A stretch of 45,654 bases of DNA from a virus. The position numbers and the translations under genes are program-made. The notes under the pieces are model-generated. The model had not been told where the DNA came from, searched no databases, and saw nothing but the letters and a program-made list of their open reading frames with translations. This document shows, in pieces, positions 128 to 45,654 of this stretch; the first letter of the stretch is position 1, and the number at the start of each line of letters is the position of its first letter. The stretch lies in the IMG/VR virus record IMGVR_UViG_3300020005_000011, positions 1 through 45,654 of that record, one strand, 5' to 3'.

Positions 128-218
128 TATTTATGCTGATTTTGAAATATCAGCCATAGACTCTTACTTTGATTCTGAACTTAAAAAAGAAATCAATAAT
201 GGCAAATCCTCAACTTGA
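66..218 (+). CDS. Small hypothetical protein, 50 aa
   Basis: An ORF of 50 codons begins with MKAKDVISHWEF and ends at TGA 216-218. It overlaps the start of the O-like gene (ATG at 199) in another frame, which suggests translational coupling. There is no clear Shine-Dalgarno sequence before the ATG; the base of the leader hairpin and its T-run lie just upstream. The product is charged and probably helical. I do not recognise it. As the first ORF after the leader, it could act as a leader peptide. Confidence 0.5.
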   Translation: MKAKDVISHWEFLKTLIERENIYADFEISAIDSYFDSELKKEINNGKSST

Positions 219-714
219 AAATGGATATACAAGAATAGCGAACGAAATTCTAGAACATTTAATTGTAGAACCATTGGGTGGTGTTGAATTAAGAATCATT
301 TTATTTATATTTCGTAAGACTTATGGGTTTAAAAAACCATCTGATAGGATTAGTTTATCTCAATTTCAAAAGGCGATTGAAGTTGGAAGACCTACAATAT
401 GTAAATATATTAAATCTCTAGTATCCAAAAGGATACTAATAAAGAATAAGGGTGTATATAAAATCAATAAGAATTGGGAGCAATGGCTAGTATCCAAAAG
501 GATACTGGTATCCAAAAGGATAATAAGTAGTATCCAAAAGGATAATCTGCTAGTATCCAAAAGGATACAGACAAAAGAAACTAATACAAAAGAAACTATA
601 CAAAATAAAGAAGACGAAGACGAAGACGTCATAAATGACGAAAAGGTAAGACCAGAAGCTCTTGATTGGTTAAAGGAACAAAAGAAAAAGTTTTTAGATA
701 AACATTCCATTTAA
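199..714 (+). CDS. Replication protein O-like initiator (winged helix), 171 aa
   Basis: The N-terminus (MANPQLENGYTRIANEIL) and the following RKTYGF and DRISLSQF segments match the phage replication protein O N-terminal domain (lambda O family), a winged-helix origin binder. I chose ATG 199 because MANPQLENG is the usual family start; an upstream TTG would add ten unrelated residues. After about residue 90 the protein runs through repeated VSKRI-type peptides, which are simply the translation of five DNA iterons (421-568), then a charged low-complexity tail. As in lambda, the origin seems to lie inside the initiator gene. The usual helicase-recruiting C-terminal half is very short or absent, and no helicase-loader gene follows. 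Confidence 0.8.
   Translation: MANPQLENGYTRIANEILEHLIVEPLGGVELRIILFIFRKTYGFKKPSDRISLSQFQKAIEVGRPTICKYIKSLVSKRILIKNKGVYKINKNWEQWLVSKRILVSKRIISSIQKDNLLVSKRIQTKETNTKETIQNKEDEDEDVINDEKVRPEALDWLKEQKKKFLDKHSI
421..568. repeat. Putative replication origin: five palindromic 16-bp iterons
   Basis: The palindrome GTATCCAAAAGGATAC occurs at 421-436, 490-505 and 553-568. Copies at 508-523 and 530-545 differ only in the last base. Four copies are clustered at start-to-start spacings of 18, 22 and 23 bp, and one lies 69 bp upstream. A purine-rich A+T tract follows (about 569-611), a candidate unwinding element. Lambda ori has the same plan: palindromic iterons inside gene O followed by an AT-rich stretch. 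The repeats are in frame and code for VSKRI units, so the peptide repeat is a by-product of the origin. Confidence 0.75.
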
Positions 715-9110: not shown

Positions 9111-9978
9111 TGAGTAAGTTGTACAAATGTAAATATTGATGATATGATTATGCTATGGATACATATCATAAACTTCCAATAAAAATACGGGAAGAAATCA
9201 TCAAAAAGCACTTTGAAAAAGGAATATCACAAGCTCAATTAGCTAAAGATTATAATGTAAGTCGTCAAATAATTTGGAGATATTGCCATAAAAAAGGAAT
9301 TTCTCCATTCTTTAAAGGTTATAAGATTGATAATGAAACAATTATTGATTTGTATAATCAAAAGAAGTCTATTCTTCAAATCTATAAGATTACAGGTTTG
9401 GGAAGAAGACAAATAGATAAACGACTGAAATTAGCTGGAATAGAAAAAAGACAATTGTCTAGAAGAAAAGAATTTGAGCAAATTTCAAATTATAGGATTA
9501 AAATGAGAATTTGGAAACTCAAAGTTAAAGAAGCTGATAATATGAAATGTATGATGTGTGGGAATACTAAACACCTTCATGTCAATCATATAATTCCAGT
9601 AAGAGATATAAGTAATTCTAATGATTTATTTGACATAAATAATGGAATTACTTTATGTAAAAAATGTCATCTGAAAATACATTTTAAAGAGTATGAGTTT
9701 GTAGATAGATTCAAACAACTTATATCTAAGCGATGTTTTGTGGATAAATAATCGGGTTAACTCAGGGAAAACCTTATAATAAGCACTAATTATAAGACAA
9801 TCCTGATCCAAGCGATTTAGGGATAAATCGAAGGAGCAACGACTAGAAGCATACTGCCAGATCGGCTATGAAGCTTCCACGAACGCCCGACATTCCAATA
9901 TAGAATGAAGATATAGTCTAACCTTACAAGTGATTGTAAGATGTAAAAGATAAAGAACTTTTACGATAATAAATATTG
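9111..9978 (+). ncRNA. Group I intron in the major capsid gene (868 nt)
   Basis: The part after the endonuclease ORF (9752-9978) has group I core signatures: CTCAGGGAAAACCTT, GACAATCCTGATCCAAGC (P3-P4 region), AACGACTAGAAG (P7 5' side) and GAAGATATAGTCTAACC (P7 3' side). AACGACTA with GATATAGTCT are the same P7 elements found in T4 td-type (IA) introns. The intron ends in G at 9978, and removing it fuses the two capsid reading frames. The HNH ORF lies before the whole core, so it occupies a 5' peripheral loop (P1 or P2). I could not draw an unbroken P1 helix with certainty. Confidence 0.9.
9155..9751 (+). CDS. Intron-encoded HNH homing endonuclease, 198 aa
   Basis: The N-terminal half has helix-turn-helix units (ISQAQLAKDYNVSRQIIWRY and a second near ILQIYKITGLGRRQID) that would contact the target. 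The C-terminal HNH domain runs from about residue 130: CMMCG, HLHVNHIIPV, NNGITLCKKCHLKIH, with complete CxxC, H, N and CxxCH residues. It lies inside the group I intron, so its expected job is cutting intronless capsid genes and driving intron homing. ATG 9155 is the first in-frame start. Confidence 0.9.
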   Translation: MDTYHKLPIKIREEIIKKHFEKGISQAQLAKDYNVSRQIIWRYCHKKGISPFFKGYKIDNETIIDLYNQKKSILQIYKITGLGRRQIDKRLKLAGIEKRQLSRRKEFEQISNYRIKMRIWKLKVKEADNMKCMMCGNTKHLHVNHIIPVRDISNSNDLFDINNGITLCKKCHLKIHFKEYEFVDRFKQLISKRCFVDK

Positions 9979-10884
9979 TTCGCTATTGTGCAGACTGAGT
10001 TAGATGATGTCTTTTTTCAGACATTTGAATATGACTCTTCAAGCCCTGGAATTGCAACAGCTCAATCAGGAGACTTGTTCAAAGTTGTACCTACTACTCA
10101 TGCTGCATATATTGGCGAAGTAAATAAAGGAACAGGACTTTGGAAGCTTACAGGTGAAACACAGACAATTTCACAGTCTACTCCTTCAGTTCGTAATAAG
10201 TATACGATCTATGTAAATGACTTTACAGATTCAATTGCTCTGTCAAAAGATTTGTTCGATGACAACATGCATGGTGTTTGGTCAGAAGACGTCAAACAAT
10301 TTGCATTAATGGCTCGAATAACTCAAGATGACCAAGCATTTGCTCTGTTCAGAAATGCATTCACTACTACTTTAACAGCAGATGGTGTTGCATTCTTTTC
10401 GGCAAGTCATGTCTTGATCGGAGGCGGAACTACTTCTAATCTCATCACTGGAGCTTTGTCTGATACAACTCTGAATAATGGAATTGTCTCACTCAGAGAG
10501 CAGAAAAACCAAGCTGGTGTCATTCTTGGTGGTGTTCCCACAATATTATTGGTCCCTTCGAAATTGTTCAAATATGCATTACAGCTGACTGATTCAGCAC
10601 TTGTAGCTGACAGTGCAAATAATGCAATCAACGTCTATCGGTCAAGTTATGGATTCAAGGTCATGTCAAGTCCATACTTAGGTGCAGCAGCAGGCGGAAG
10701 TGATACTGCTTGGTTTTTGCTGACTCCTAATCATTCAGTGTCAAGACTTGTCAGACAAGGAGTTCAGACAGCTTTGACCCCATGGCAGTACAGCAATAAC
10801 AGGACATACAACTATCAAGGAAATTTTCGTGAAAGTGTATTTGTTCCTGATTATTCTGGTGCAGTAGCAAGCTTGGGCACTTAA
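9979..10884 (+). CDS. Major capsid protein, exon 2 (301 codons)
   Basis: This encodes residues 11-311 of the spliced capsid protein. Features fit the HK97-fold family near Mu gpT: DGVAFFSASH near the middle (compare the family's FSxxH element), then SLREQKNQAGVILGGVPTIL, VPSKLFKYAL and a C-terminal VFVPDYSGAV. The frame is open upstream only to a TTG at 9976 inside the intron end, and no ATG or ribosome site is present, which supports splicing rather than independent translation. Position after scaffold and decoration genes agrees. Confidence 0.88.
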   Translation, partial: FAIVQTELDDVFFQTFEYDSSSPGIATAQSGDLFKVVPTTHAAYIGEVNKGTGLWKLTGETQTISQSTPSVRNKYTIYVNDFTDSIALSKDLFDDNMHGVWSEDVKQFALMARITQDDQAFALFRNAFTTTLTADGVAFFSASHVLIGGGTTSNLITGALSDTTLNNGIVSLREQKNQAGVILGGVPTILLVPSKLFKYALQLTDSALVADSANNAINVYRSSYGFKVMSSPYLGAAAGGSDTAWFLLTPNHSVSRLVRQGVQTALTPWQYSNNRTYNYQGNFRESVFVPDYSGAVASLGT

Positions 10885-35166: not shown

Positions 35167-37380
35167 TCAGAATATTAAAAGCTGTCCTTCACTGACTCGT
35201 AATCTTTTAGGTATATTTGGTATGCCATACAATTTTAGCCAATTGACAGAAGAATGTGATGCTTCTAATATTCTAAGCAAAGGAGGAAAAATTTTATTAT
35301 TCCAATAATAATGCCGGTCAAATTCTTCTTTAAAATTTTCTTTAAGAAGAAAGATTTTAGATTCATTATTAAGAACAACATATTCTATTTCAGAAGATTC
35401 TAATTCTCCCTTTTCATCAATAATTTTTTTAGCCAATCTTACATGTGGAGCATTAGTCTGAACATAGTCATTGATGTTCTTTCCTAATTGTGTAGAGATT
35501 TTTAATTCATCAAATGTAAATTTATCATTGTTGATTTTATTAAGTTCTTGGCTTAGAAATCCTCTAATCTCAGATTCTGCATAGTCATCTAAAACCATTT
35601 CAATTAATGACCTTTGAGACTTGAGAACCATTGGTAAAGTCGCCTTTTTTGCTATCTCTAATCCAACAGCTTTGAATTGATCAGATTTTGCAACAGTCTT
35701 ATTTTCAATATTAACAATCCTGCCTGCATAGGTCTTCTTATTCACCAGGATCATTTCTGAGAACAATTTTTCATATTTAAGAGTTATATATACTTCATTA
35801 ACATTATACTCACTCAGAGTGAATTTGATCTTCTTATGGTATTGAGAAAGGACATCATTTATATCTAGTTCTCTGTCTGATTTGACGAATATTGAGTCAG
35901 TGTCACCATAGATTGTTTTAAGTCCATTAATATTGTCAAAATAATCTTTAGAAAATTTTAACAGCCATTGTCCTGTCAAAGTGATTGATTTTGCAATGTC
36001 TAATGAGTAGTATCTTAGTCCATGGTTTCCTAAGACTCCATAGATTGAATTCGACAATTCTTTAACAATGATTTCATTTGCTCTTGCTGTTTTAAACTCT
36101 TCAGTGTTCATTTTGCCATGACCGATTAAATCTAATCTTAATCTTTTATATGACTGTCTTTCTTCAATGAGCCTTCTTACAACCTTTGAAATTATAGATT
36201 CTTTATCTTTGCTGAAATATAAATTAGTTCCTGGATTTTTTATTCCACTGTCAGATATTGTGTCAAAGCCAAGATTGAAAGTCATAATGATTGAAGGATA
36301 AAGGCTTTTAAAATCAAAAACATAAACATTCTTGTGTAGACCAATATCTGGATCAAGAACAAGACCACCTGCATAAGGGTCCTTTCTGACTTCTCTTTTT
36401 GAAGGACAATAGATTTTATTAAGATGAGCTTCTTTTAAAATCATTGAATCAAGAATTTGAGAGACATAAATCCCTGCAAAGTCTCTGATTAAGCATTTAG
36501 CCATTGAGCATTCTTTTCCAATAAGGTCAAATATTCCAATCTTATCATCTAATTCTTTAAGAATATAGACATCATTTAAGTTATATGCTTTAAGTTCTTC
36601 TTTAGTCATGTTAATAATTTTTCCTTGAAATTGAATTTTGCCTTTGTTTAAGAACTTCTGTGCTATATTTTCTAGTTTATATGATTTTAAAGAAGCATCT
36701 TCTTGAAACAATCTTTTTAGTCTTTTAAGCATGTCAATTTTTGCCAATTTTATCCAGTCAATGAATTTTGAATTATTGTATACTTGCCATCTCATTTCAA
36801 GATAAGGAATATCAAATTGGTCAATATTCCAGCCTGTTACGACGTCATATTTTCCAAAAAGATTCTGAACTTTAGAGAGGATAATATTTTCATCTCCATT
36901 AAAATAAAATTCATTTCCATTATTGTCAACTGCTCCAAAGGCTATAATCTTGTCATGTCCAATTTCAATTCTCATATTAGAATCATCTGTTTCTATATCG
37001 AAATAGAGAATATCATATTTGTCATCAACATCAACATCATTGTCAACCATAAATCTTTTTGCACTATGCAAATCAGCTTCAAATGTTTCAATTTTATATT
37101 CTCTTAAAATCTTAACTAATGTTCTAGAGTCAGACCAATTGCTTCCTTCATCTTTGTCTGCATAAAGCTTTGTATATTTTTTTCCATCTTCGACTTTAGA
37201 CAATACTCCTGACAATTCTAACTTATTTTTAAATTTAATCCAATCTTTAGTTAAGATGACACAATACCACATAAAGTTTGTAATGACAAATTTTTTTCTT
37301 ATATCATTGTCTTTATATGTAAAAATCAGATCATTTCCTTGGCTATATGCATTTCTTATCTTTATATCATTTATTGTCAT
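35167..37380 (-). CDS. Family B DNA polymerase, 737 aa
   Basis: Complete PolB signatures. The 3'-5' exonuclease has FDIET (127-131), NIDQFD (185-190) and YNLND (266-270). The polymerase has DFKSLYPSII (356-365), KELSNSIYG (440-448), YGDTDS (491-496) and KKTYAGR (about 560). ATG 37380 overlaps the hydroxymethylase end by 14 nt; a start 54 nt upstream lies wholly inside that gene. It is compact for the family and follows the nucleotide-modification genes in the same operon. Such polymerases must accept modified dCTP if the modification cassette works as inferred. I see no protein-priming insertion with confidence. No primase or replicative helicase gene is evident in the window. Confidence 0.95.
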   Translation of the reverse strand: MTINDIKIRNAYSQGNDLIFTYKDNDIRKKFVITNFMWYCVILTKDWIKFKNKLELSGVLSKVEDGKKYTKLYADKDEGSNWSDSRTLVKILREYKIETFEADLHSAKRFMVDNDVDVDDKYDILYFDIETDDSNMRIEIGHDKIIAFGAVDNNGNEFYFNGDENIILSKVQNLFGKYDVVTGWNIDQFDIPYLEMRWQVYNNSKFIDWIKLAKIDMLKRLKRLFQEDASLKSYKLENIAQKFLNKGKIQFQGKIINMTKEELKAYNLNDVYILKELDDKIGIFDLIGKECSMAKCLIRDFAGIYVSQILDSMILKEAHLNKIYCPSKREVRKDPYAGGLVLDPDIGLHKNVYVFDFKSLYPSIIMTFNLGFDTISDSGIKNPGTNLYFSKDKESIISKVVRRLIEERQSYKRLRLDLIGHGKMNTEEFKTARANEIIVKELSNSIYGVLGNHGLRYYSLDIAKSITLTGQWLLKFSKDYFDNINGLKTIYGDTDSIFVKSDRELDINDVLSQYHKKIKFTLSEYNVNEVYITLKYEKLFSEMILVNKKTYAGRIVNIENKTVAKSDQFKAVGLEIAKKATLPMVLKSQRSLIEMVLDDYAESEIRGFLSQELNKINNDKFTFDELKISTQLGKNINDYVQTNAPHVRLAKKIIDEKGELESSEIEYVVLNNESKIFLLKENFKEEFDRHYYWNNKIFPPLLRILEASHSSVNWLKLYGIPNIPKRLRVSEGQLLIF

Positions 37381-38170
37381 ATGAATTGAGCCATTTAGCA
37401 AATAAAAATTCATCAGGAATTTGGATAAAATCATTTTTTCTTAAAAATTCTACTTCATCTGAATTTAGAATTTTAGGACATTTTAAATCTTCAAATTCAT
37501 CTTGACTTATAATCTTGTCAAGCATTTCAAAATGTTTAGAATAAATATGAAAGCTGTCTACAATATGATAATAATTTCCTATAAGCAAATCTAAATAATC
37601 ATTTTTAAGAGTCATATAAATCATTTCATGTATGAAAGAAAAACAAGGAAGATCAGAAGCAAGACCATAGATAGCATCTTGGCTTCTCATATGAACTGAC
37701 ATATTAAGTTTATTGTTTCGAATTCTGAAACTTAAAGCAATTGTGCATGGCAAATCAGCGTCTTTTGACAAAACATGGTCTTTGTTTAGTATAGAAATAA
37801 TCGCTCTTCTTGAATCTTTATCTTCTTTTAAAGTTTTAATGACATAATCAAATTGATTATTTTCTCCAAAGATATACTGTCCATAATTTGAATGAATTAT
37901 TCCTTCTTTATTTATCATATCTTTCCATAACTTTGCGTGTTCTACAATGCTTAAATCAAATTTGTTTCCATTTAAGTACCATAAAAATTCCTTTTTAATA
38001 TAATCTAAATTTAATTTTCTTGATTTGAAATTAATAAACCTGTAATATGAAGGAAATTCAACATGAAAATTTTCAATTTCTAATACTTTAAATCCTCTTG
38101 GAGAAACCAATTTTCCTTGAGAATAAAGGTTAGTATAAATGATTTTAAAAAATATTTGTTGTTCACTCAT
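37367..38170 (-). CDS. Deoxycytidylate hydroxymethylase-like (ThyA family), 267 aa
   Basis: ThyA-fold features: EFLWYLNGN, DSRRAI (phosphate-binding Arg pair), catalytic Cys in DLPCT and HMRSQD. The asparagine that selects dUMP in ThyA (E. coli N177, in LPFNI) is aspartate here (GLASDLP), as in T4 gp42 dCMP hydroxymethylase (Asp179). The base after the catalytic Cys is Thr (PCT), as in gp42 (MCT), where ThyA has His; HSNYG resembles the gp42 SNYG rather than ThyA PVYG; SFHIYSKHF resembles SLHVYSRHF. I therefore infer conversion of dCMP to hydroxymethyl-dCMP with methylene-tetrahydrofolate. It overlaps the kinase fusion upstream (ATGA). A dCMP methylase or unusual dUMP enzyme is the alternative. 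Confidence 0.78.
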   Translation of the reverse strand: MSEQQIFFKIIYTNLYSQGKLVSPRGFKVLEIENFHVEFPSYYRFINFKSRKLNLDYIKKEFLWYLNGNKFDLSIVEHAKLWKDMINKEGIIHSNYGQYIFGENNQFDYVIKTLKEDKDSRRAIISILNKDHVLSKDADLPCTIALSFRIRNNKLNMSVHMRSQDAIYGLASDLPCFSFIHEMIYMTLKNDYLDLLIGNYYHIVDSFHIYSKHFEMLDKIISQDEFEDLKCPKILNSDEVEFLRKNDFIQIPDEFLFAKWLNSYDNK

Positions 38171-39084
38171 AAAGATTTTTTAATTTGTTCTGCATAATCA
38201 ATATATGAAATACCTGCTCGAGAGACAAAGGATGGGTGCCAAGCACTCGATAAGGCTTTTGTGAAGTCGCTCGTCGCTCTGAGAGCGTTTAAAATAGAAA
38301 AGCTGTTAGTACCTAAAGCTATAACCTTCTCGATGTGAGGCAGATTAATTTCTTTAAGCAATGCTTCTCTATTCTCATTTTCAGTAAAATCAAGCTTTAT
38401 TGCATTAGTAATTAATGAACTTTTAAGAATTTCTAATCTTGTTAATGCTTTGAAAAGAACCAAACCTGGTTGATTATGAGAAAATGGTGCTAAAGGTTCA
38501 ATCAATGGCCTTCCATACTTTTCTGCTACAAAAAGATATTTTGCATTTCTCAAATTTCCAATAATTCGATAATTCTTAGTCATTTCAATATCATAAGCAT
38601 CTGGCTGCATGACAAATTCTTCTGCAACTCTTTCTATATTGTCTCCAATTTTATATCGAAACCAAGTCAACAAACTTGAATTAATTTCTTTTTCATAATT
38701 ATTAAGTATTAAAGGAATCTCTTCATCTTTAGAAAATTCTTCATTGTCTGTCTTGAATCTCTGTCTGATTTTATAAACGTCATCATAGCAATAGATGTTA
38801 AATGTATTTAAGCTAAGGCAAATCATTTCAATGACTTTGGTATTTCGAAAATCTAATTGCGATTTTTCTCTTTTAACTGGTCCGTAAACATTTTCATCTA
38901 TGTAATGCCTGTCAAATATTGTTGGAACTTTAGCATTGTAAAGTGAATCAATATAAGATTTGTACATGTCTTGATAAGGTTTAGGATTTGAAAATTTAAC
39001 AATTGGCATTTTAAATTTTTCTGACAAGAATTTTGCTAATGTTGTTTTACCTGTTTTATTTTCTCCTGTAATTATTATGTTCAT
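38167..39084 (-). CDS. Nucleotide kinase fused to UDG-like domain, 305 aa
   Basis: Residues 1-150: a P-loop kinase with GENKTGKTT (7-15) and IFDRHYIDENVYGP (about 56-69), the DR-x-VYGP element seen in phage thymidylate or dNMP kinase-like proteins. Residues about 170-305: a uracil-DNA-glycosylase-superfamily pattern, with YLFVAEKYGRP (compare FVGExPG), SLITNAIK, KVIALGTNS and AWHPSFVSR (compare the HPS motif). The Glu of motif 1 and the HPS are kept. The fusion is unusual. In the operon it sits between the glucosyltransferase and the hydroxymethylase, joined by ATGA overlaps on both sides. The kinase may make hmdCDP; the UDG-like part might remove unwanted bases or bind DNA. Confidence 0.75.
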   Translation of the reverse strand: MNIIITGENKTGKTTLAKFLSEKFKMPIVKFSNPKPYQDMYKSYIDSLYNAKVPTIFDRHYIDENVYGPVKREKSQLDFRNTKVIEMICLSLNTFNIYCYDDVYKIRQRFKTDNEEFSKDEEIPLILNNYEKEINSSLLTWFRYKIGDNIERVAEEFVMQPDAYDIEMTKNYRIIGNLRNAKYLFVAEKYGRPLIEPLAPFSHNQPGLVLFKALTRLEILKSSLITNAIKLDFTENENREALLKEINLPHIEKVIALGTNSFSILNALRATSDFTKALSSAWHPSFVSRAGISYIDYAEQIKKSL

Positions 39085-40385
39085 AAAATTTCTCTTCTTA
39101 TTCGTCCTTTAGAACGAACATAAACTCTGACATCCTTTCTTTTTAAATCTGAGGGATCGAAAGCAATATTCTTTACTTCTGAATTAGAAACTAATAAAAA
39201 AGACATTAATTGTTCTTTATTCATTGTTTTAGTGTCCTTTGAGGTGATTTTAGTCACTACCTCGTGAACTCTTTTAAATGGGTTGTAGAATTCATTAAGG
39301 ACTGTCTTTTGACGCTCGAGGAGTGATTCTCGTTCTTCTTGATTGGTATAGAGCATTTTCATTTGCTCTGATACTTGTTTTGCATTAGTTCCATCATATG
39401 ATAAGCAAAAATTATAGTCTATAAGTTTCTTTCCATTAAGATAAACATTCTCTAAAAAATGAGTGTGAAGAATACATATGCATTGATTATCCATCATTTC
39501 TGCAATGACAAAGTCTGATTTGCTTCCATAGTTGTTTGCTTTTAAATGATAACCTGAAAATGCAAACATGCTCTTTCTTAAATATCCTAGCATCTGATCA
39601 TTTGGTGCAATTCCTCGAATATTGATTTTATCAAGCTGATTTGAATTTTTATATGACAGATAAGAACAGTCAGGATTGTTAATAAAATCTAATGATTCAA
39701 TAGTTCGTCCTATTCCATAACATTCAAATTCTGTGTCAAATGTATTGCTGAGCATTAATTCAATCATCATTTCTGGTGACTTAAAAGAAGCAAAGCGGCC
39801 AATGTATACGCAAGAATTTTCTTTGTCCTTAATTTTTTCTTTGACTTGAGGAGTATAAGGATGAGCAAAATCAAAAATTCTGTCTTGCTTGTATGGAAGC
39901 CATTTTTTAATTTCTTTTGCATAATCTCCATCCTTTGAATTAAAGACAAATATATAGTCGATAAAATTAAGTCCTAGAAGAATCTTAGTCTGGTGATTGA
40001 TATATTGTGCGTTATTGAAAACTAAAAATGCTGCAAGAATAATATTTGCATTATGAAGTTCTTCTAATTGAGAATAAAATAAATCAATTTCTTCTATAGT
40101 GTTTTTGTCATTAGGAAAAGATCCTATGTAAATGATTTTTTCATTCTTCAGCTCATCGAATATGTTAACTGTTTCAATTACTTCAAAATCTGACAAAGAA
40201 AAATTTTTTGAATTTGAGTAATTGGCAAAATTACTTTTAAAATGAATGATTTTTTTGTTTTTGAATAGACGAGAAAATTCAATGACATGTTTTGTTCCAC
40301 CGACACCGTCTTGATTAGCATTAAGCCAAGTTATTTTATTGAACAATGTTCGATTGTAATTATCGTCCTGAACTTCCAAGTCCAT
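39081..40385 (-). CDS. T4 alpha-glucosyltransferase-like DNA glucosyltransferase, 434 aa
   Basis: GT-B fold protein with regions that line up by eye with T4 AGT: GVGGTKHVIEFSRLF with CGVTKFSLEQRDWF; FNSKDGDYAKEIKKWLP with SHSDNGDFNKVLMKEWYP; CVYIGRFASFKS with NRWIGRTTTWKG; SDFVIAEMMDNQCICILH with YTHLELGACGTIPVFW (the acceptor-side Glu). The catalytic His region of AGT is not clearly kept. Start at ATG 40385, overlapping dUTPase by 26 nt; a longer start lies deeper inside dUTPase. Extra C-terminal 60 residues are basic and may bind DNA. Expected role: adding glucose from UDP-glucose to hydroxymethylcytosine in DNA. A general GT4 enzyme is the alternative. Confidence 0.7.
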   Translation of the reverse strand: MDLEVQDDNYNRTLFNKITWLNANQDGVGGTKHVIEFSRLFKNKKIIHFKSNFANYSNSKNFSLSDFEVIETVNIFDELKNEKIIYIGSFPNDKNTIEEIDLFYSQLEELHNANIILAAFLVFNNAQYINHQTKILLGLNFIDYIFVFNSKDGDYAKEIKKWLPYKQDRIFDFAHPYTPQVKEKIKDKENSCVYIGRFASFKSPEMMIELMLSNTFDTEFECYGIGRTIESLDFINNPDCSYLSYKNSNQLDKINIRGIAPNDQMLGYLRKSMFAFSGYHLKANNYGSKSDFVIAEMMDNQCICILHTHFLENVYLNGKKLIDYNFCLSYDGTNAKQVSEQMKMLYTNQEERESLLERQKTVLNEFYNPFKRVHEVVTKITSKDTKTMNKEQLMSFLLVSNSEVKNIAFDPSDLKRKDVRVYVRSKGRIRREIL

Positions 40386-40791
40386 GGTGTTTTCTTTCTT
40401 TAACTTTTTGTACAATGAGCTTATCGTCAACTATTAAACAATTAGATGTATCTGTTCGATGGATTAAAATTTGTCCAATTTTATCTCCTTTATGAATTTT
40501 AAATGGAACATCTGAATTGTTTTGAAGAATAATTGAAATTTCTGATTCAAATCCTGCATCAATAATATCTCCGATAACGTCAATTCCATGATTAATTGCA
40601 AGACTTGATCTTCCATGCATGATATAAACCTTGTCAGTTTCTCCATTGATTGAAAAACCTAGCATAAATCGATGTCTTCGTCCTGGTTCTAGTGCATAGT
40701 CTTCTAATGACATTACATTCCATCCGCTGTCAAAAGAATATGACTTAGTTGGGATTTTTAATGATTGAGATATTTTTTTAATCCTGAACAT
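40360..40791 (-). CDS. dut: Trimeric dUTPase-like nucleotidohydrolase, 143 aa
   Basis: Five-motif dUTPase layout: DSGWNV (motif 1), GRSSLA (2), GDIIDAGFESEI (3), GDKIGQILI (4) and GLGSSGR at the C-terminus (5). It hydrolyses dUTP to dUMP, lowering uracil in DNA and feeding thymidylate synthesis. In T4 the analogous step (gp56) also destroys dCTP to force use of modified dCTP. Whether this enzyme accepts dCTP cannot be read from the sequence. Its end overlaps the glucosyltransferase gene. Confidence 0.88.
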   Translation of the reverse strand: MFRIKKISQSLKIPTKSYSFDSGWNVMSLEDYALEPGRRHRFMLGFSINGETDKVYIMHGRSSLAINHGIDVIGDIIDAGFESEISIILQNNSDVPFKIHKGDKIGQILIHRTDTSNCLIVDDKLIVQKVKERKHHGLGSSGR

Positions 40792-41067
40792 TTACAATAA
40801 AGTTTCTTTTGGATTAATTTTAAGTCTTCCTGTTTTAAGTTCTCTTTTAAAATCTAAATATTTTTGAGACACTTGTCTTGTTTTTATAGGATTTTTTAAT
40901 GTTCGTCCTTGATTGTCCTTTCCAATGAGGACTTCAACTGTCGGAATGCACCAAAAGGTTATTCTATTTTCAACTTTTTTTATTATTGCTCCTCTTCTTA
41001 TTGCTTCGTCAATGACCTCTTGCTTGACATAACCTAAGAGTTCATTTCTGACTAAATTAGTATTCAT
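40792..41067 (-). CDS. Hypothetical protein, 91 aa
   Basis: MNTNLVRNELLGYVKQEVID then mixed alpha/beta with ITFWCIPTVEVLIGKDNQGR and a basic end. It abuts the dUTPase start (TAA followed directly by ATG), so it belongs to the same operon. No recognised domain; possibly a small nucleic-acid-binding factor. Confidence 0.6.
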   Translation of the reverse strand: MNTNLVRNELLGYVKQEVIDEAIRRGAIIKKVENRITFWCIPTVEVLIGKDNQGRTLKNPIKTRQVSQKYLDFKRELKTGRLKINPKETLL

Positions 41068-41113
41068 AATTTTAGTTCTTAATTCTGCCCTCTAAATGAG
41101 AGCAGTCAAAAAA

Positions 41114-41359
41114 TTAAACTTGTGGTTGAGCTGCTGTTTCTGCTGATTGAGAAATTTCAATTGAAGGTTTATCCTCGTTTACTTGGGATTTTCTAATTCG
41201 AGATTTTTGAGCTTCTTTTCTTAAATTCTGAGCTTCAATTTTAATTTCTTGCAGATATTTTCTAAATTTAACGAGATTAGGATATCTTGGATTTTCTTCA
41301 TATGCAGTTAATGCTGAATCTGCATTTGACAATGATAATTTAAGTTTTGTTAAGTCCAT
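41114..41359 (-). CDS. Small basic protein, histone H1-like pattern, 81 aa
   Basis: MDLTKLKLSLSNADSALTAY followed by NLVKFRKYLQEIKIEAQNLR and KSRIRKSQ, then a polar acidic tail. The central helix with regularly spaced Lys/Arg is reminiscent of bacterial H1-like (Hc1) proteins, but the resemblance is weak. A DNA-binding role is possible. Confidence 0.45.
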   Translation of the reverse strand: MDLTKLKLSLSNADSALTAYEENPRYPNLVKFRKYLQEIKIEAQNLRKEAQKSRIRKSQVNEDKPSIEISQSAETAAQPQV

Positions 41360-41360
41360 A

Positions 41361-41609
41361 TTATTTATGTGTTAATTGTTGTTCTAATTTTCCTTCTTCT
41401 GCTTGAACTAAATATTGAATGATGTTTTCTCCAAGTATATGATATCGAGTTCCTGAAGTTCCTTTTCCTACGTATTTTACTGCTTTGAGATAATTATTAG
41501 TTCTTCTGTCAAGTTCAACCCATCTTCTTAAAGCTGGAAGAGATTCGATCCAGGGAATGAAGTCTAATAGTTCAGAAAGATTGTAATATTTTGCTGGATT
41601 TATTTCCAT
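41361..41609 (-). CDS. HTH DNA-binding protein, excisionase-like, 82 aa
   Basis: MEINPAKYYNLSELLDFIPW then LPALRRWVELDRRTNNYLKA and RYHILGENIIQYLV. The order of a YNLSEL-type helix, a recognition helix with RR, and a beta-hairpin resembles MerR/excisionase-type winged helices. ATG 41609 is chosen over a start 27 nt upstream because it follows the SSB-like end more tightly. Candidate regulator of this operon. Confidence 0.55.
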   Translation of the reverse strand: MEINPAKYYNLSELLDFIPWIESLPALRRWVELDRRTNNYLKAVKYVGKGTSGTRYHILGENIIQYLVQAEEGKLEQQLTHK

Positions 41610-41613
41610 ATAC

Positions 41614-41955
41614 TTAAAATGGAAGTTCATCATCACTTATGTTAATTTGAGGTTTATCGACCAAAACCTTGTCTTCTAAAACTTTAACTCTTTGTTCCAG
41701 TATATCTAGCTTTGTTGGAAGCTTGAAGTTTTTAAATCCGTCCCTTTCTTCAATTATGATATTGACTTCATCTCCTTGTTTTAGACCCATAACTCTGTCA
41801 TCTTGATTAAATGCTAATGTTGAAAACCATTCGTCTCCAAATTTATCTGTCTTAATGGAAATTTTCCAGAAAGATTTTCCTTCTCTAGTCTTAAATTTAG
41901 TCCCGTCTTTTTTCTGATCTGAAACATAAACTTGTGTTAGTTTGACTGTATTCAT
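41614..41955 (-). CDS. SSB-like OB-fold protein, 113 aa
   Basis: Strand-rich N-terminal half (FWKISIKTDKFGDEWFSTLA, GDEVNIIIEERDGFKNFKL) fits an OB fold, followed by a short helix and the acidic tail ISDDELPF, very like the SSB C-terminal tip DDDIPF that recruits partner proteins. It likely coats single-stranded DNA during replication or recombination. It lies next to the RecB/Cas4-like nuclease. Confidence 0.72.
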   Translation of the reverse strand: MNTVKLTQVYVSDQKKDGTKFKTREGKSFWKISIKTDKFGDEWFSTLAFNQDDRVMGLKQGDEVNIIIEERDGFKNFKLPTKLDILEQRVKVLEDKVLVDKPQINISDDELPF

Positions 41956-41961
41956 ATTTTT

Positions 41962-42711
41962 TTATTTAATGATATCATTTAATTCCTGTTGAAGTTTATA
42001 AATTTTTAAGCAAGCTAGAAAGACTTCTTGATTGCTTTGTCTTCCATAGCTTTTTTCAATTACAAATTCTCCGTTCTTTCTGCAGTTGATAATCATATAT
42101 CCTTTAATGTCTTGATATAATTCAGTTTCATTTTCTGATAAACAGATGTCATAGCCTGCTATTTGCCAGAACATATCTGGACTTACTCCTGAACTTGTCT
42201 TGATGTCTCCTATGTATTTCTCTCGTCCAATTTCAAAGACTAAGTCGACTGTTCCTGCATACCAGAATTTCTCTGAATATACTTGTTTTTCACTTTCTAA
42301 AAATTTTACTCTGTTGTCTTCACTCCATTTAACAAAATTATCAGTTATATGCTTGATGTCTTGTTCAGAAACTGGAGGATTTGAATTGTTGATTTTAGCA
42401 TTGACATAAGATTCAATCCACGTATGCGTCTTTTTTCCTGTATCGGCTGCGGTTCTTGATATTTGTCTATGAGAGTTTTTAGCTTGCTCTAATAATTCAT
42501 CTGTTACTCTAAATGCAGTTAACTTAGAATCAGAATCATAAATTTTTTCTGCATTTTGTTTAATATATTCAATCGTAGTTTTAGCAGCCCAAGCGACAAG
42601 CCATGGCTTACTGATAATTGAAATCACACTTGTAACTCCTGTCAGAGGTTTTTCGTTTAAAGTATAGAGGTGTTTGTCTTTGTCAAATTTGAAATTTTTA
42701 TTTTCTATCAT
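41962..42711 (-). CDS. PD-(D/E)XK exonuclease (RecB/Cas4-like), 249 aa
   Basis: The core WYAGTVDLVFEIGREKYIGD (around residues 148-168) with IKTSSG and QIAGY gives the D...xIKTxxG...QxxxY order of RecB-family PD-(D/E)XK nucleases. N-terminal segments TGVTSVISIISKP and AADTGKKTHTWIE match those seen in phage exonucleases. No Cys cluster, so an iron-sulfur Cas4 type is unlikely. With the SSB-like neighbour it may form a recombination pair or resect DNA. Confidence 0.8.
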   Translation of the reverse strand: MIENKNFKFDKDKHLYTLNEKPLTGVTSVISIISKPWLVAWAAKTTIEYIKQNAEKIYDSDSKLTAFRVTDELLEQAKNSHRQISRTAADTGKKTHTWIESYVNAKINNSNPPVSEQDIKHITDNFVKWSEDNRVKFLESEKQVYSEKFWYAGTVDLVFEIGREKYIGDIKTSSGVSPDMFWQIAGYDICLSENETELYQDIKGYMIINCRKNGEFVIEKSYGRQSNQEVFLACLKIYKLQQELNDIIK

Positions 42712-42866
42712 ATTTTTAGAATTTGCCTTTCTTTATTTTTATAGATAATTAATATCTCGTTCTTTTGAAATTGTCTGACTTTCTTAATGTCACTTAAATT
42801 AATTTTATTGTTCTTAAGAATTTGTTCAATTTCACTCGAAGTTTTAAATGTATCGATTTTAGGCAT
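42708..42866 (-). CDS. Small hypothetical protein, 52 aa
   Basis: MPKIDTFKTSSEIEQILKNN and KKVRQFQKNEILIIYKNKER. It overlaps the end of the ParB-like gene by 8 nt and the start of the nuclease by 3 nt (ATGA), fitting the coupled operon. Probably a small alpha/beta protein. Confidence 0.55.
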   Translation of the reverse strand: MPKIDTFKTSSEIEQILKNNKINLSDIKKVRQFQKNEILIIYKNKERQILKI

Positions 42867-43770
42867 TTAATTTGACCTTTTCAACTGCGAATTTTTCAAT
42901 TGTTGCATGCAGTAAATATAGAAGAGAAAGAATACGGTCTTTCTGAAACTGAGGGAGTTCTTCAATTGAATGGTTTTTTAACAGAGTATTAAGACTCATT
43001 ATTTCAAGAGCTAATTCTTCAACTAAAGCAATTTTAGGTTTGAGAATGTCAGTGATAGGGCTAGGACTGTATCCAGTAATGTGTTTACGAAGAAGATTTG
43101 TAGCTTCATACTCTTTGAGATTGTAAAAGTTGAAGTTGAAGATTTTATCTTCGTAAGAAGGAAAGTTGACAAGAGCAAAGGCTAATGCTAGTTTAACTTC
43201 TCTGTTTGTGATTTTATCATCATCTATTTTTTTTAAGAATTTTAGTTTTTGCTCTTTTGACATCTTCTTTAAAGAGTGAATTAATTTAGGTGAATGCTTT
43301 TTAGCTATTTTCTTGCCTAATTCATCTAATTTTAGATACACCAAATGACTCTTGACCCAGCTGTGTGATTTTCCGATTGTTCTTGCTAGCCAGGCAGAAC
43401 CTTGATCTTTAGAATAGTTAGTAGATTTTTTCCAAAACATCTTGATAAATTTCTGTATTGCATGGGCTGTCTCGTCAATGTCCATTGTTTGATTATGGAT
43501 ATTTTCTAAGAATTGTCTTCTGAATCTTGACTTGCTGTCAGTCATTTTTATGATTTTAGCAGGCACAGTTTTAAGACCTGCTAACTTTGCTGCTCTCCAT
43601 CTACTTTCACCTGTGATTATAACATAGTCTTCATCAATTTCAATAGGATTAATCATGCCTTCTATAGAAATGTTTTTAGAAAGTGATTCTAATGTTTCAG
43701 GACTAAATCTCTTGCGGGGCTGATCAGGGTCTGGCTTGATTTTGTTAATATCTATTTCTTCAATTTGCAT
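42859..43770 (-). CDS. ParB-like protein, 303 aa
   Basis: The N-terminal ParB/Srx domain is clear: INKIKPDPDQPRKRF, EGMINPIEI and ITGESRWRAAKLAG (about 52-65), then a helical region with KSHSWVKSHLVYLKLDELGK as the HTH. In chromosomal ParB this domain binds CTP and spreads from parS. In phages such proteins often regulate transcription or nick DNA. No ParA ATPase is found here. AAGGAG lies upstream and the start overlaps the preceding gene. The C-terminal 100 residues are less typical. Confidence 0.8.
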   Translation of the reverse strand: MQIEEIDINKIKPDPDQPRKRFSPETLESLSKNISIEGMINPIEIDEDYVIITGESRWRAAKLAGLKTVPAKIIKMTDSKSRFRRQFLENIHNQTMDIDETAHAIQKFIKMFWKKSTNYSKDQGSAWLARTIGKSHSWVKSHLVYLKLDELGKKIAKKHSPKLIHSLKKMSKEQKLKFLKKIDDDKITNREVKLALAFALVNFPSYEDKIFNFNFYNLKEYEATNLLRKHITGYSPSPITDILKPKIALVEELALEIMSLNTLLKNHSIEELPQFQKDRILSLLYLLHATIEKFAVEKVKLNA

Positions 43771-44323
43771 GACTGAGCTCCTTGACTTTTTCTCTAATTC
43801 TTTTCTTTGCTTCTAATGCTTTAGTCTGGATAGTCTCTGATATTTCTAAAATTGAATCATATTCCTCAGGGTGCTTTTCTAAAAATATTTCCATTGATTC
43901 AACTTGCCGAACAAGAGAAGGATTAGACATATACTTTTGCCTATTATTTGAACTTTCAATAAAATGTTCTTTGTTTTCAGTAACATCAGCTAAGATACCT
44001 TCCTTTCCAAATTCTCCTCGTACTGTGCCGACTGGATGAATGAAGTATCCTTTTTTTCTTAAAATATTAAGAGAATGTTGGATTTCGTCAACTGTCTTAT
44101 GGTATCTCTTGGCATAACCAGACATGGTGTCTTTGATTCCTTCTTTGACATCATTGAGAATTTTATAATTTAAGCTTCCAGGAATTATATGATCGTAAAA
44201 ATTCTTGTAGCCTTGCTTTTGATATTCAATGCGTCGTTGTTGTTTTACTCTTTCAGTAGTATATTTGCTCCACTTTTGTTTATTTTCTAACCTCTGTTGG
44301 TCTGTTAATCGTCGTCTAGCCAT
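43760..44323 (-). CDS. Winged-helix-like protein, 187 aa
   Basis: A strongly basic start (MARRRLTDQQRLENKQKW; KQQRRIEYQKQGYK) is followed by MSGYAKRYHKTVDEIQHSLN and ILRKKGYFIHPVG, which reads like a winged-helix pair with its wing. The C-terminus is charged helix. AAAGGA lies before the ATG. It could be a DNA-binding replication or regulatory factor; I cannot name a family. Confidence 0.55.
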   Translation of the reverse strand: MARRRLTDQQRLENKQKWSKYTTERVKQQRRIEYQKQGYKNFYDHIIPGSLNYKILNDVKEGIKDTMSGYAKRYHKTVDEIQHSLNILRKKGYFIHPVGTVRGEFGKEGILADVTENKEHFIESSNNRQKYMSNPSLVRQVESMEIFLEKHPEEYDSILEISETIQTKALEAKKRIREKVKELSHAN

Positions 44324-45048: not shown

Positions 45049-45252
45049 CTAATTAAATATTTCATTTATAGCTTGAACTGATTTAGCCAATCTTTCGCTT
45101 ATAGCTTGAACTGATTTAGCCAATCTTTCGCTTGAACTTTTTGCTCCATTTTTTGTATGCTTCTCACAAGCATATTTCCCTACGGCTTTGGAAGAAGCGA
45201 AATGAGTTTTGTGTTTACAAAACCAGCATTTTTTAGGTTCTGGAAATTCCAT
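45049..45252 (-). CDS. Small Cys/His protein with tandem repeat, 67 aa
   Basis: CWFCKHKTHF and CEKH (about residues 9-31) form a likely zinc site. The C-terminal half is two copies of SERLAKSVQAI, from a 33-bp DNA repeat. It is the first gene of the leftward operon, preceded by AAAGGA. Function unknown; first-gene position suggests an immediate-early role. Confidence 0.65.
   Translation of the reverse strand: MEFPEPKKCWFCKHKTHFASSKAVGKYACEKHTKNGAKSSSERLAKSVQAISERLAKSVQAINEIFN
45066..45131. repeat. Two perfect 33-bp tandem repeats
   Basis: The 33-base unit at 45066-45098 repeats exactly at 45099-45131, in frame with the zinc-type protein and giving an 11-residue repeat. Perfect identity points to a recent duplication. 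Confidence 0.9.
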
Positions 45253-45511: not shown

Positions 45512-45527
45512 ACTTGAAGATAGCCAA

Positions 45528-45653
45528 TTAAACAAATGTCCGGTCACAAGCCCCGCTACTCCCTGACCGGACGGCGGGGTTTTAAAAATATATGAAAGCA
45601 AAAGATGTAATTAGCCATTGGGAATTTCTTAAAACTCTTATCGAAAGAGAAAA
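45528..45653. repeat. 126-bp direct terminal repeat, right copy
   Basis: Exact copy of 2-127. It directly follows the rightward promoter, so joining the ends places the leader and first genes downstream of that promoter. This joining makes biological sense and supports circular or redundant ends. Confidence 0.9.
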
Positions 45654-45654
45654 A

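What the first reader, a model, noticed from the sequence alone, without database searches (positions are those of the whole stretch)
421..611. Lambda-like origin: palindromic iterons inside the O-like initiator gene
Five 16-bp palindromes (three perfect) and an AT-rich tract lie within the gene whose N-terminus is an O-type winged helix. Lambda places ori in gene O in the same way. The repeats force a VSKRI peptide repeat.
Basis: partly seen in the sequence, partly recalled or inferred. Interest (0 to 1): 0.75.

Follow-up and report, generated by a model that had tools for sequence, protein, structure and literature searches.

The report
Lambda-type origin with winged-helix iteron
This phage probably starts copying its DNA from repeated sites hidden inside the gene for the starter protein, as phage lambda does, but one extra site lies inside the stretch that encodes the protein's own DNA-reading domain, at a distance that distant relatives also keep.

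Summary
Five 16-bp elements GTATCC-AAAA-GGATAC/A occur at 421, 490, 508, 530 and 553, all inside gene 199-714 (PF04492 Phage_rep_O, E=3e-25) and nowhere else in 45.6 kb. Four of them plus the A-rich tract 569-611 form a lambda-type origin: spacing 18/22/23 (20/24/23 in phage 434), and 26 of 28 bases of the tract match 434. That part is a new member of a known kind.

Of 50 divergent O-like genes with arrays, 27 carry their own iteron inside the DNA-binding-domain coding sequence, against 0.4% for another phage's iteron. Nearly all lie in the helix-3/wing stretch, in all three frames; 18 of 31 keep a 68-69 bp distance although iteron, peptide and wing length differ. Eleven lambdoid-type O genes lack it. 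I found no description of this. Its function (auxiliary O site) is inferred. GC skew is confounded with gene orientation. This O is short, without a C-terminal partner domain, and no DnaB-type helicase is recognisable.

The parts
199..714 (+). O-like replication initiator gene, 171 aa (PF04492 Phage_rep_O, residues 5-96)
388..426 (+). coding sequence of the predicted recognition helix (residues 64-76) of the winged-helix domain
   Evidence: AlphaFold model, pLDDT about 97 there
421..436 (+). iteron 1 GTATCCAAAAGGATAC, inside the DNA-binding-domain coding sequence (helix-3 end to beta strand 2, VSKRI 75-79)
   Evidence: same place in relatives
490..505 (+). iteron 2, first of the 4-copy array, directly after the conserved NKNWEQW motif
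508..523 (+). iteron 3 (GTATCCAAAAGGATAA)
530..545 (+). iteron 4 (GTATCCAAAAGGATAA), out of frame with the other copies (SIQKDN)
553..568 (+). iteron 5 (GTATCCAAAAGGATAC)
569..611 (+). A-rich unwinding tract with two 13-bp direct repeats ACAAAAGAAACTA (571-583, 586-598)
   Evidence: 26/28 identical to the tract after the iterons in phage 434
487..648 (+). coding sequence of the linker predicted disordered (residues 97-150), which hosts iterons 2-5 and the A-rich tract
   Evidence: pLDDT 54-68
649..711 (+). short C-terminal helix (residues 152-168); the longer C-terminal region of most relatives is absent
   Evidence: relatives are mostly 190-340 aa

Best explanation
This is a lambda-type theta replication origin embedded in its own initiator gene. 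Dimers of the 171-aa O-like winged-helix protein bind the inverted-repeat iterons; four clustered iterons (490-568) build an O-some-like complex that opens the adjacent A-rich tract (569-611) so that a helicase can be loaded. The fifth iteron (421-436), 69 bp upstream, lies in the DNA that encodes the end of the recognition helix and the start of the wing. Shown here: the sequence elements, that they are not chance, the family-wide position and spacing, the frame-independence and the match to lambda-type origins. Inferred: binding, opening, and the role of iteron 1.
For: PF04492 match; iterons confined to this gene; same layout as 434 with annotated gpO sites; A-rich tract 26/28 identical to 434, and ACAAAAGA repeats just after the last iteron in 33 of 50 relatives, 1.36 per gene against 0.35 on synonymous resampling; relatives have other iteron sequences at the same places, and 6 of 10 tested have a DnaB-type helicase gene downstream. 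Embedded copy: 27 of 50 own-motif versus 0.4% of cross pairs, frames 13/11/9, 68-69 bp to the array in 18 of 31. Recognition-helix similarity tracks iteron similarity beyond overall similarity (partial r -0.23, permutation p 0.002). In Stx phages extra distal iterons are weakly bound yet needed for plasmid replication (PMC7466680).
Against: No binding or replication data. The protein lacks the C-terminal region that in lambda contacts the loader P, and no DnaB-type helicase is recognisable in the genome, so helicase recruitment is unexplained. The phage has a family B polymerase on the other strand, an unusual partner for an O-type initiator. Eleven lambdoid-type O genes lack an embedded copy, so the extra site is not required for the mechanism in general. 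GC skew is uninformative.
Confidence: 0.84

Rival explanations
1. The origin is as described, but iteron 1 has no present role: it is a relic, or the seed from which the array was duplicated, kept in step with the array by gene conversion.
For: In-frame copies encode a peptide close to the general winged-helix consensus LxxKxII, so an origin by duplication of this coding segment is plausible; lambdoids do without it.
Against: Copies occur in all three frames and in different structural elements (helix end, wing tip; in L217 and L137 an N-terminal helix) while the 68-69 bp distance is often kept. A relic would not be expected to hold distance when wing length changes.
Confidence: 0.25
2. The 68-69 bp distance is set by the protein, not by the nucleoprotein complex: the rigid strand-plus-NKxxxxW segment of about 16 residues cannot hold an iteron, so copies sit as close as possible on both sides of it.
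For: The array starts 0-7 nt after the W codon and the wing copy ends just before beta strand 3 in most relatives.
Against: Spacing inside the disordered linker (18/19, 22, 23) is equally constant although no fold constrains it.
Confidence: 0.35
3. The repeats are an operator through which the O protein represses its own gene, rather than an origin.
For: Binding inside the gene could block transcription; iteron 1 is nearest the promoter side.
Against: Sites lie within the gene next to a conserved A-rich tract, in the layout of proven lambda-type origins.
Confidence: 0.06
4. The 16-bp inverted repeats are a partition or packaging site, read by the ParB-like protein (42859-43770) or by a small terminase near 1692.
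For: A ParB_N protein is encoded and the terminase genes lie about 1 kb downstream.
Against: Only a ParB_N domain was found in that protein; arrays in relatives follow the O gene's binding domain in sequence and place, often with helicase genes next to them.
Confidence: 0.04

Closest known systems
ori-lambda in gene O of lambda / phage 434 (iterons ITN1-4 plus 38-bp AT-rich region)
   Same: Initiator family PF04492; inverted-repeat iterons with an AAAA-type centre directly after the NKxxxxW motif; array spacing 18/22/23 versus 20/24/23; A-rich tract 26/28 identical.
   Different: A fifth iteron lies inside the winged-helix coding sequence; the iteron sequence differs; the protein is 171 aa instead of 299 aa; no P or DnaB gene recognised.
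Stx phage P27 / 933W origins with six iterons (PMC7466680)
   Same: Extra iterons beyond the basic four, distal to the AT-rich region.
   Different: There the two extra iterons lengthen the O protein by 13 residues and, as I read the paper, sit next to the array; here the extra one lies 69 bp away inside the binding domain.
Iteron plasmids (RK2, P1, F, R6K)
   Same: Initiator bound to repeated sites next to an A+T-rich unwinding region.
   Different: Mostly direct repeats bound by initiator monomers (PMC5043065).

Membership tests
Lambda-type origin (ori in gene O) | Initiator of the Phage_rep_O family | tested here: met
   PF04492, 89 bits, cut-off 28.7
Lambda-type origin (ori in gene O) | About four inverted-repeat iterons inside the initiator gene after the DNA-binding domain | tested here: met
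   490-568, spacing 18/22/23
Lambda-type origin (ori in gene O) | A-rich / AT-rich tract immediately after the last iteron | tested here: met
   569-611; 26/28 match to 434
Lambda-type origin (ori in gene O) | C-terminal partner domain of O and a loader (P) or DnaB helicase gene next to it | tested here: not met
   171-aa protein with one short C-terminal helix; DnaB_C absent; next gene is an HNH/NinG-like endonuclease. This limits the claim of full membership in the lambda O-P system, not the claim that the DNA is a lambda-type origin.
Lambda-type origin (ori in gene O) | O dimers bind the iterons and open the tract; replication starts here | not testable with these tools
   needs gel shift, footprint, 2D gel or coverage
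DBD-embedded iteron variant (this work) | Own iteron within the winged-helix coding sequence, about 68-69 bp before the array | tested here: met
   421-436, 69 bp
ParB/parS centromere | Repeats bound by a ParB with its HTH | tested here: inconclusive
   only ParB_N found in the ParB-like protein; binding not testable here

The most novel reading that the evidence does not exclude
In a broad group of phages the DNA encoding the initiator's winged helix is itself a functional, position-fixed binding site for that winged helix. Reader and site are written in the same bases, so specificity can only change when the domain, its embedded site and the array change together.
Probability: 0.5. Interest if true: 0.68.

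Novelty: new variant of a known kind. Interest (0 to 1): 0.5.

Why it matters
Lambda's origin has been studied for decades with four iterons in the linker-coding part of gene O. Here many environmental relatives add a site inside the DNA-binding-domain coding sequence at a near-fixed distance, with the iteron sequence changing from phage to phage in step. This gives about fifty natural initiator/site pairs for reading the recognition code of the O family, a strict case of dual-use DNA, and a testable geometry for the O-some; a 2024 review states that the structure of O bound to iterons is unsolved (PMC10797057).

Tried and rejected
Searching for any ATCCnnnnGGAT pair: many hits, not followed. 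Close relatives via TerL or PolB: none close, so the test 'iterons absent in close relatives' could only be done at 40-52% identity. A code-25 (Gracilibacteria) host suggested by L217: rejected for the window because 12 of 44 long ORFs end in TGA. GC skew as proof of origin: rejected as confounded with gene orientation. Synonymous-shuffle test of the embedded copy: weak by design, because the peptide itself carries much of the motif; replaced by the own-versus-other-phage motif test. Solved structures: no O structure in the PDB, only generic winged helices.

Full report
CHECK. The window is a phage genome with a 128-bp end overlap (126 identical), so it is probably complete, although IMG/VR classes it as linear. 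Gene 199-714 encodes a 171-aa Phage_rep_O protein (PHROG 'replication initiation O-like'). The five inverted repeats are at 421, 490, 508, 530 and 553 and nowhere else. Spacing is 69, 18, 22, 23. Copies 1, 2, 3 and 5 read VSKRI; copy 4 is in another frame. The tract 569-611 is 67% A, which no other 43-bp window of the genome exceeds.

ANATOMY. The AlphaFold model built with 45 relatives shows a confident winged helix: helices 9-23, 28-44, 53-60, recognition helix 64-76, strands 80-83 and 86-89. Calling 64-76 the recognition helix is by position in the fold (general knowledge of winged helices). After W96 the chain is predicted disordered (97-150), then one short helix. Iterons 2-5 and the A-rich tract lie in DNA for the disordered linker, where the peptide is free to vary. 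Iteron 1 encodes residues 75-79, the end of the recognition helix and the turn into the next strand, inside the folded domain.

LAMBDA COMPARISON. Phage 434 carries a lambda-type origin annotated with four gpO sites at spacing 20, 24, 23, starting right after NKNISEW. The window's array starts right after NKNWEQW. Its A-rich tract ACAAAAGAAACTAATACAAAAGAAACTA differs from 434 at 2 of 28 positions, and from SEN22, MS2 LVA and BPM-V3 at 3; the reversed query gives 8-12 mismatches. ACAAAAGA repeats follow the last iteron in 33 of 50 relatives, in any frame, with a mean of 1.36 per gene against 0.35 after synonymous resampling.

RELATIVES. I collected 79 distinct O-like genes from IMG/VR and one MAG contig. 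For each, a 15-bp motif was derived only from DNA after the binding domain and then sought inside the binding-domain coding sequence. Of 50 genes with an array and less than 75% identity to each other, 27 contain their own motif with at most 2 mismatches (33 with at most 3). For 2094 pairs with a dissimilar motif from another phage the rates are 0.4% and 2.4%. Thirty of the 33 lie 50-90 nt before the end of the W codon, the helix-3/wing stretch. L137 and L217, the nearest relatives, carry a copy in the N-terminal helix coding instead; L137 has a degenerate wing copy too.

GEOMETRY. The distance from the embedded copy to the first array copy is 68 or 69 bp in 18 of 31 genes where both could be measured; within the array 18/19, 22, 23(24) recur. 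Examples: window 69-18-22-23; L141 and L146 68-18-22-23; L158 21-68-18-22-23; L164 69-18-23-22-24. Embedded copies fall in frames 0, 1 and 2 (13, 11, 9) and encode different peptides (VSKRI, VIKKDN, IAKKGN, LSKLIT and others). With a short wing the copy falls in the helix end, with a longer wing in the wing tip, and several genes have one in each. This argues for a constraint on DNA position. Part of it may come from the rigid strand-plus-NKxxxxW segment, which cannot hold an iteron; I cannot separate the two.

DISTRIBUTION. On a tree built without the wing columns most carriers form one group that includes the window, with L153, L177 and L154 outside it; support is modest because few columns remain. 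Eleven O genes from named phages, mostly lambdoid, show no embedded copy. The sample was chosen by similarity to the window, so 27 of 50 is not a prevalence.

CO-VARIATION. Similarity of the recognition helix tracks similarity of iterons beyond overall similarity (partial rank correlation -0.23, permutation p 0.002). The effect is modest, and shared ancestry is only partly controlled.

MECHANISM. By analogy with lambda, where O dimers bind each iteron, form an O-some and open the AT-rich region (PMC3985674, PMC5043065), the four-copy array and tract are the core origin. The embedded copy resembles in role the distal iterons 1' and 1'' of Stx phages, weakly bound but needed for plasmid replication (PMC7466680). 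Open points: the window's O lacks the C-terminal region, its neighbour is an HNH/NinG-like gene, and DnaB_C is absent, whereas 6 of 10 relatives tested have a DnaB-type gene downstream. How a helicase arrives is unknown.

VERDICT. Ordinary in being a lambda-type origin; a new variant in the embedded, position-fixed iteron. I did not find it described in nine literature searches of an open-access library, which does not hold most of the classic lambda papers.

Noticed in passing
9711-9940: Group I intron (RF00028, 78 bits) on the + strand between ORF 9155-9751 and a major-head-like ORF at 9976-10884; possibly an intron inside the head gene.
   Followed up: no
18-60 (again at about 45540-45585): Two interlocked inverted repeats, GTCCGGTCA/TGACCGGAC and CCCCGC/GCGGGG followed by a T run, just upstream of the O gene; a pseudoknot or alternative terminator is possible (z -1.7).
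   Followed up: partly
571-598 and relatives: ACAAAAGA repeats at 12-15 bp after the last iteron are conserved in any reading frame across the O family; possibly a sequence-specific single-strand element.
   Followed up: partly
1-128 and 45527-45654: Direct end repeat with 2 mismatches, although IMG/VR classes the record as linear.
   Followed up: partly
35167-44323: Leftward cluster with PolB, thymidylate synthase, kinase, dUTPase, exonuclease and ParB-like genes but no recognised helicase or primase.
   Followed up: partly
45060-45140: Short tandem duplication (tatagcttgaactgatttagccaatctttcgctt, twice) seen by eye.
   Followed up: no
L137 about 2061-2083, L217 about 2061-2083: Iteron-like copy CTAGT(C/T)AAGACACCTTTACTAGG in the N-terminal helix coding sequence of the two nearest relatives.
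   Followed up: partly
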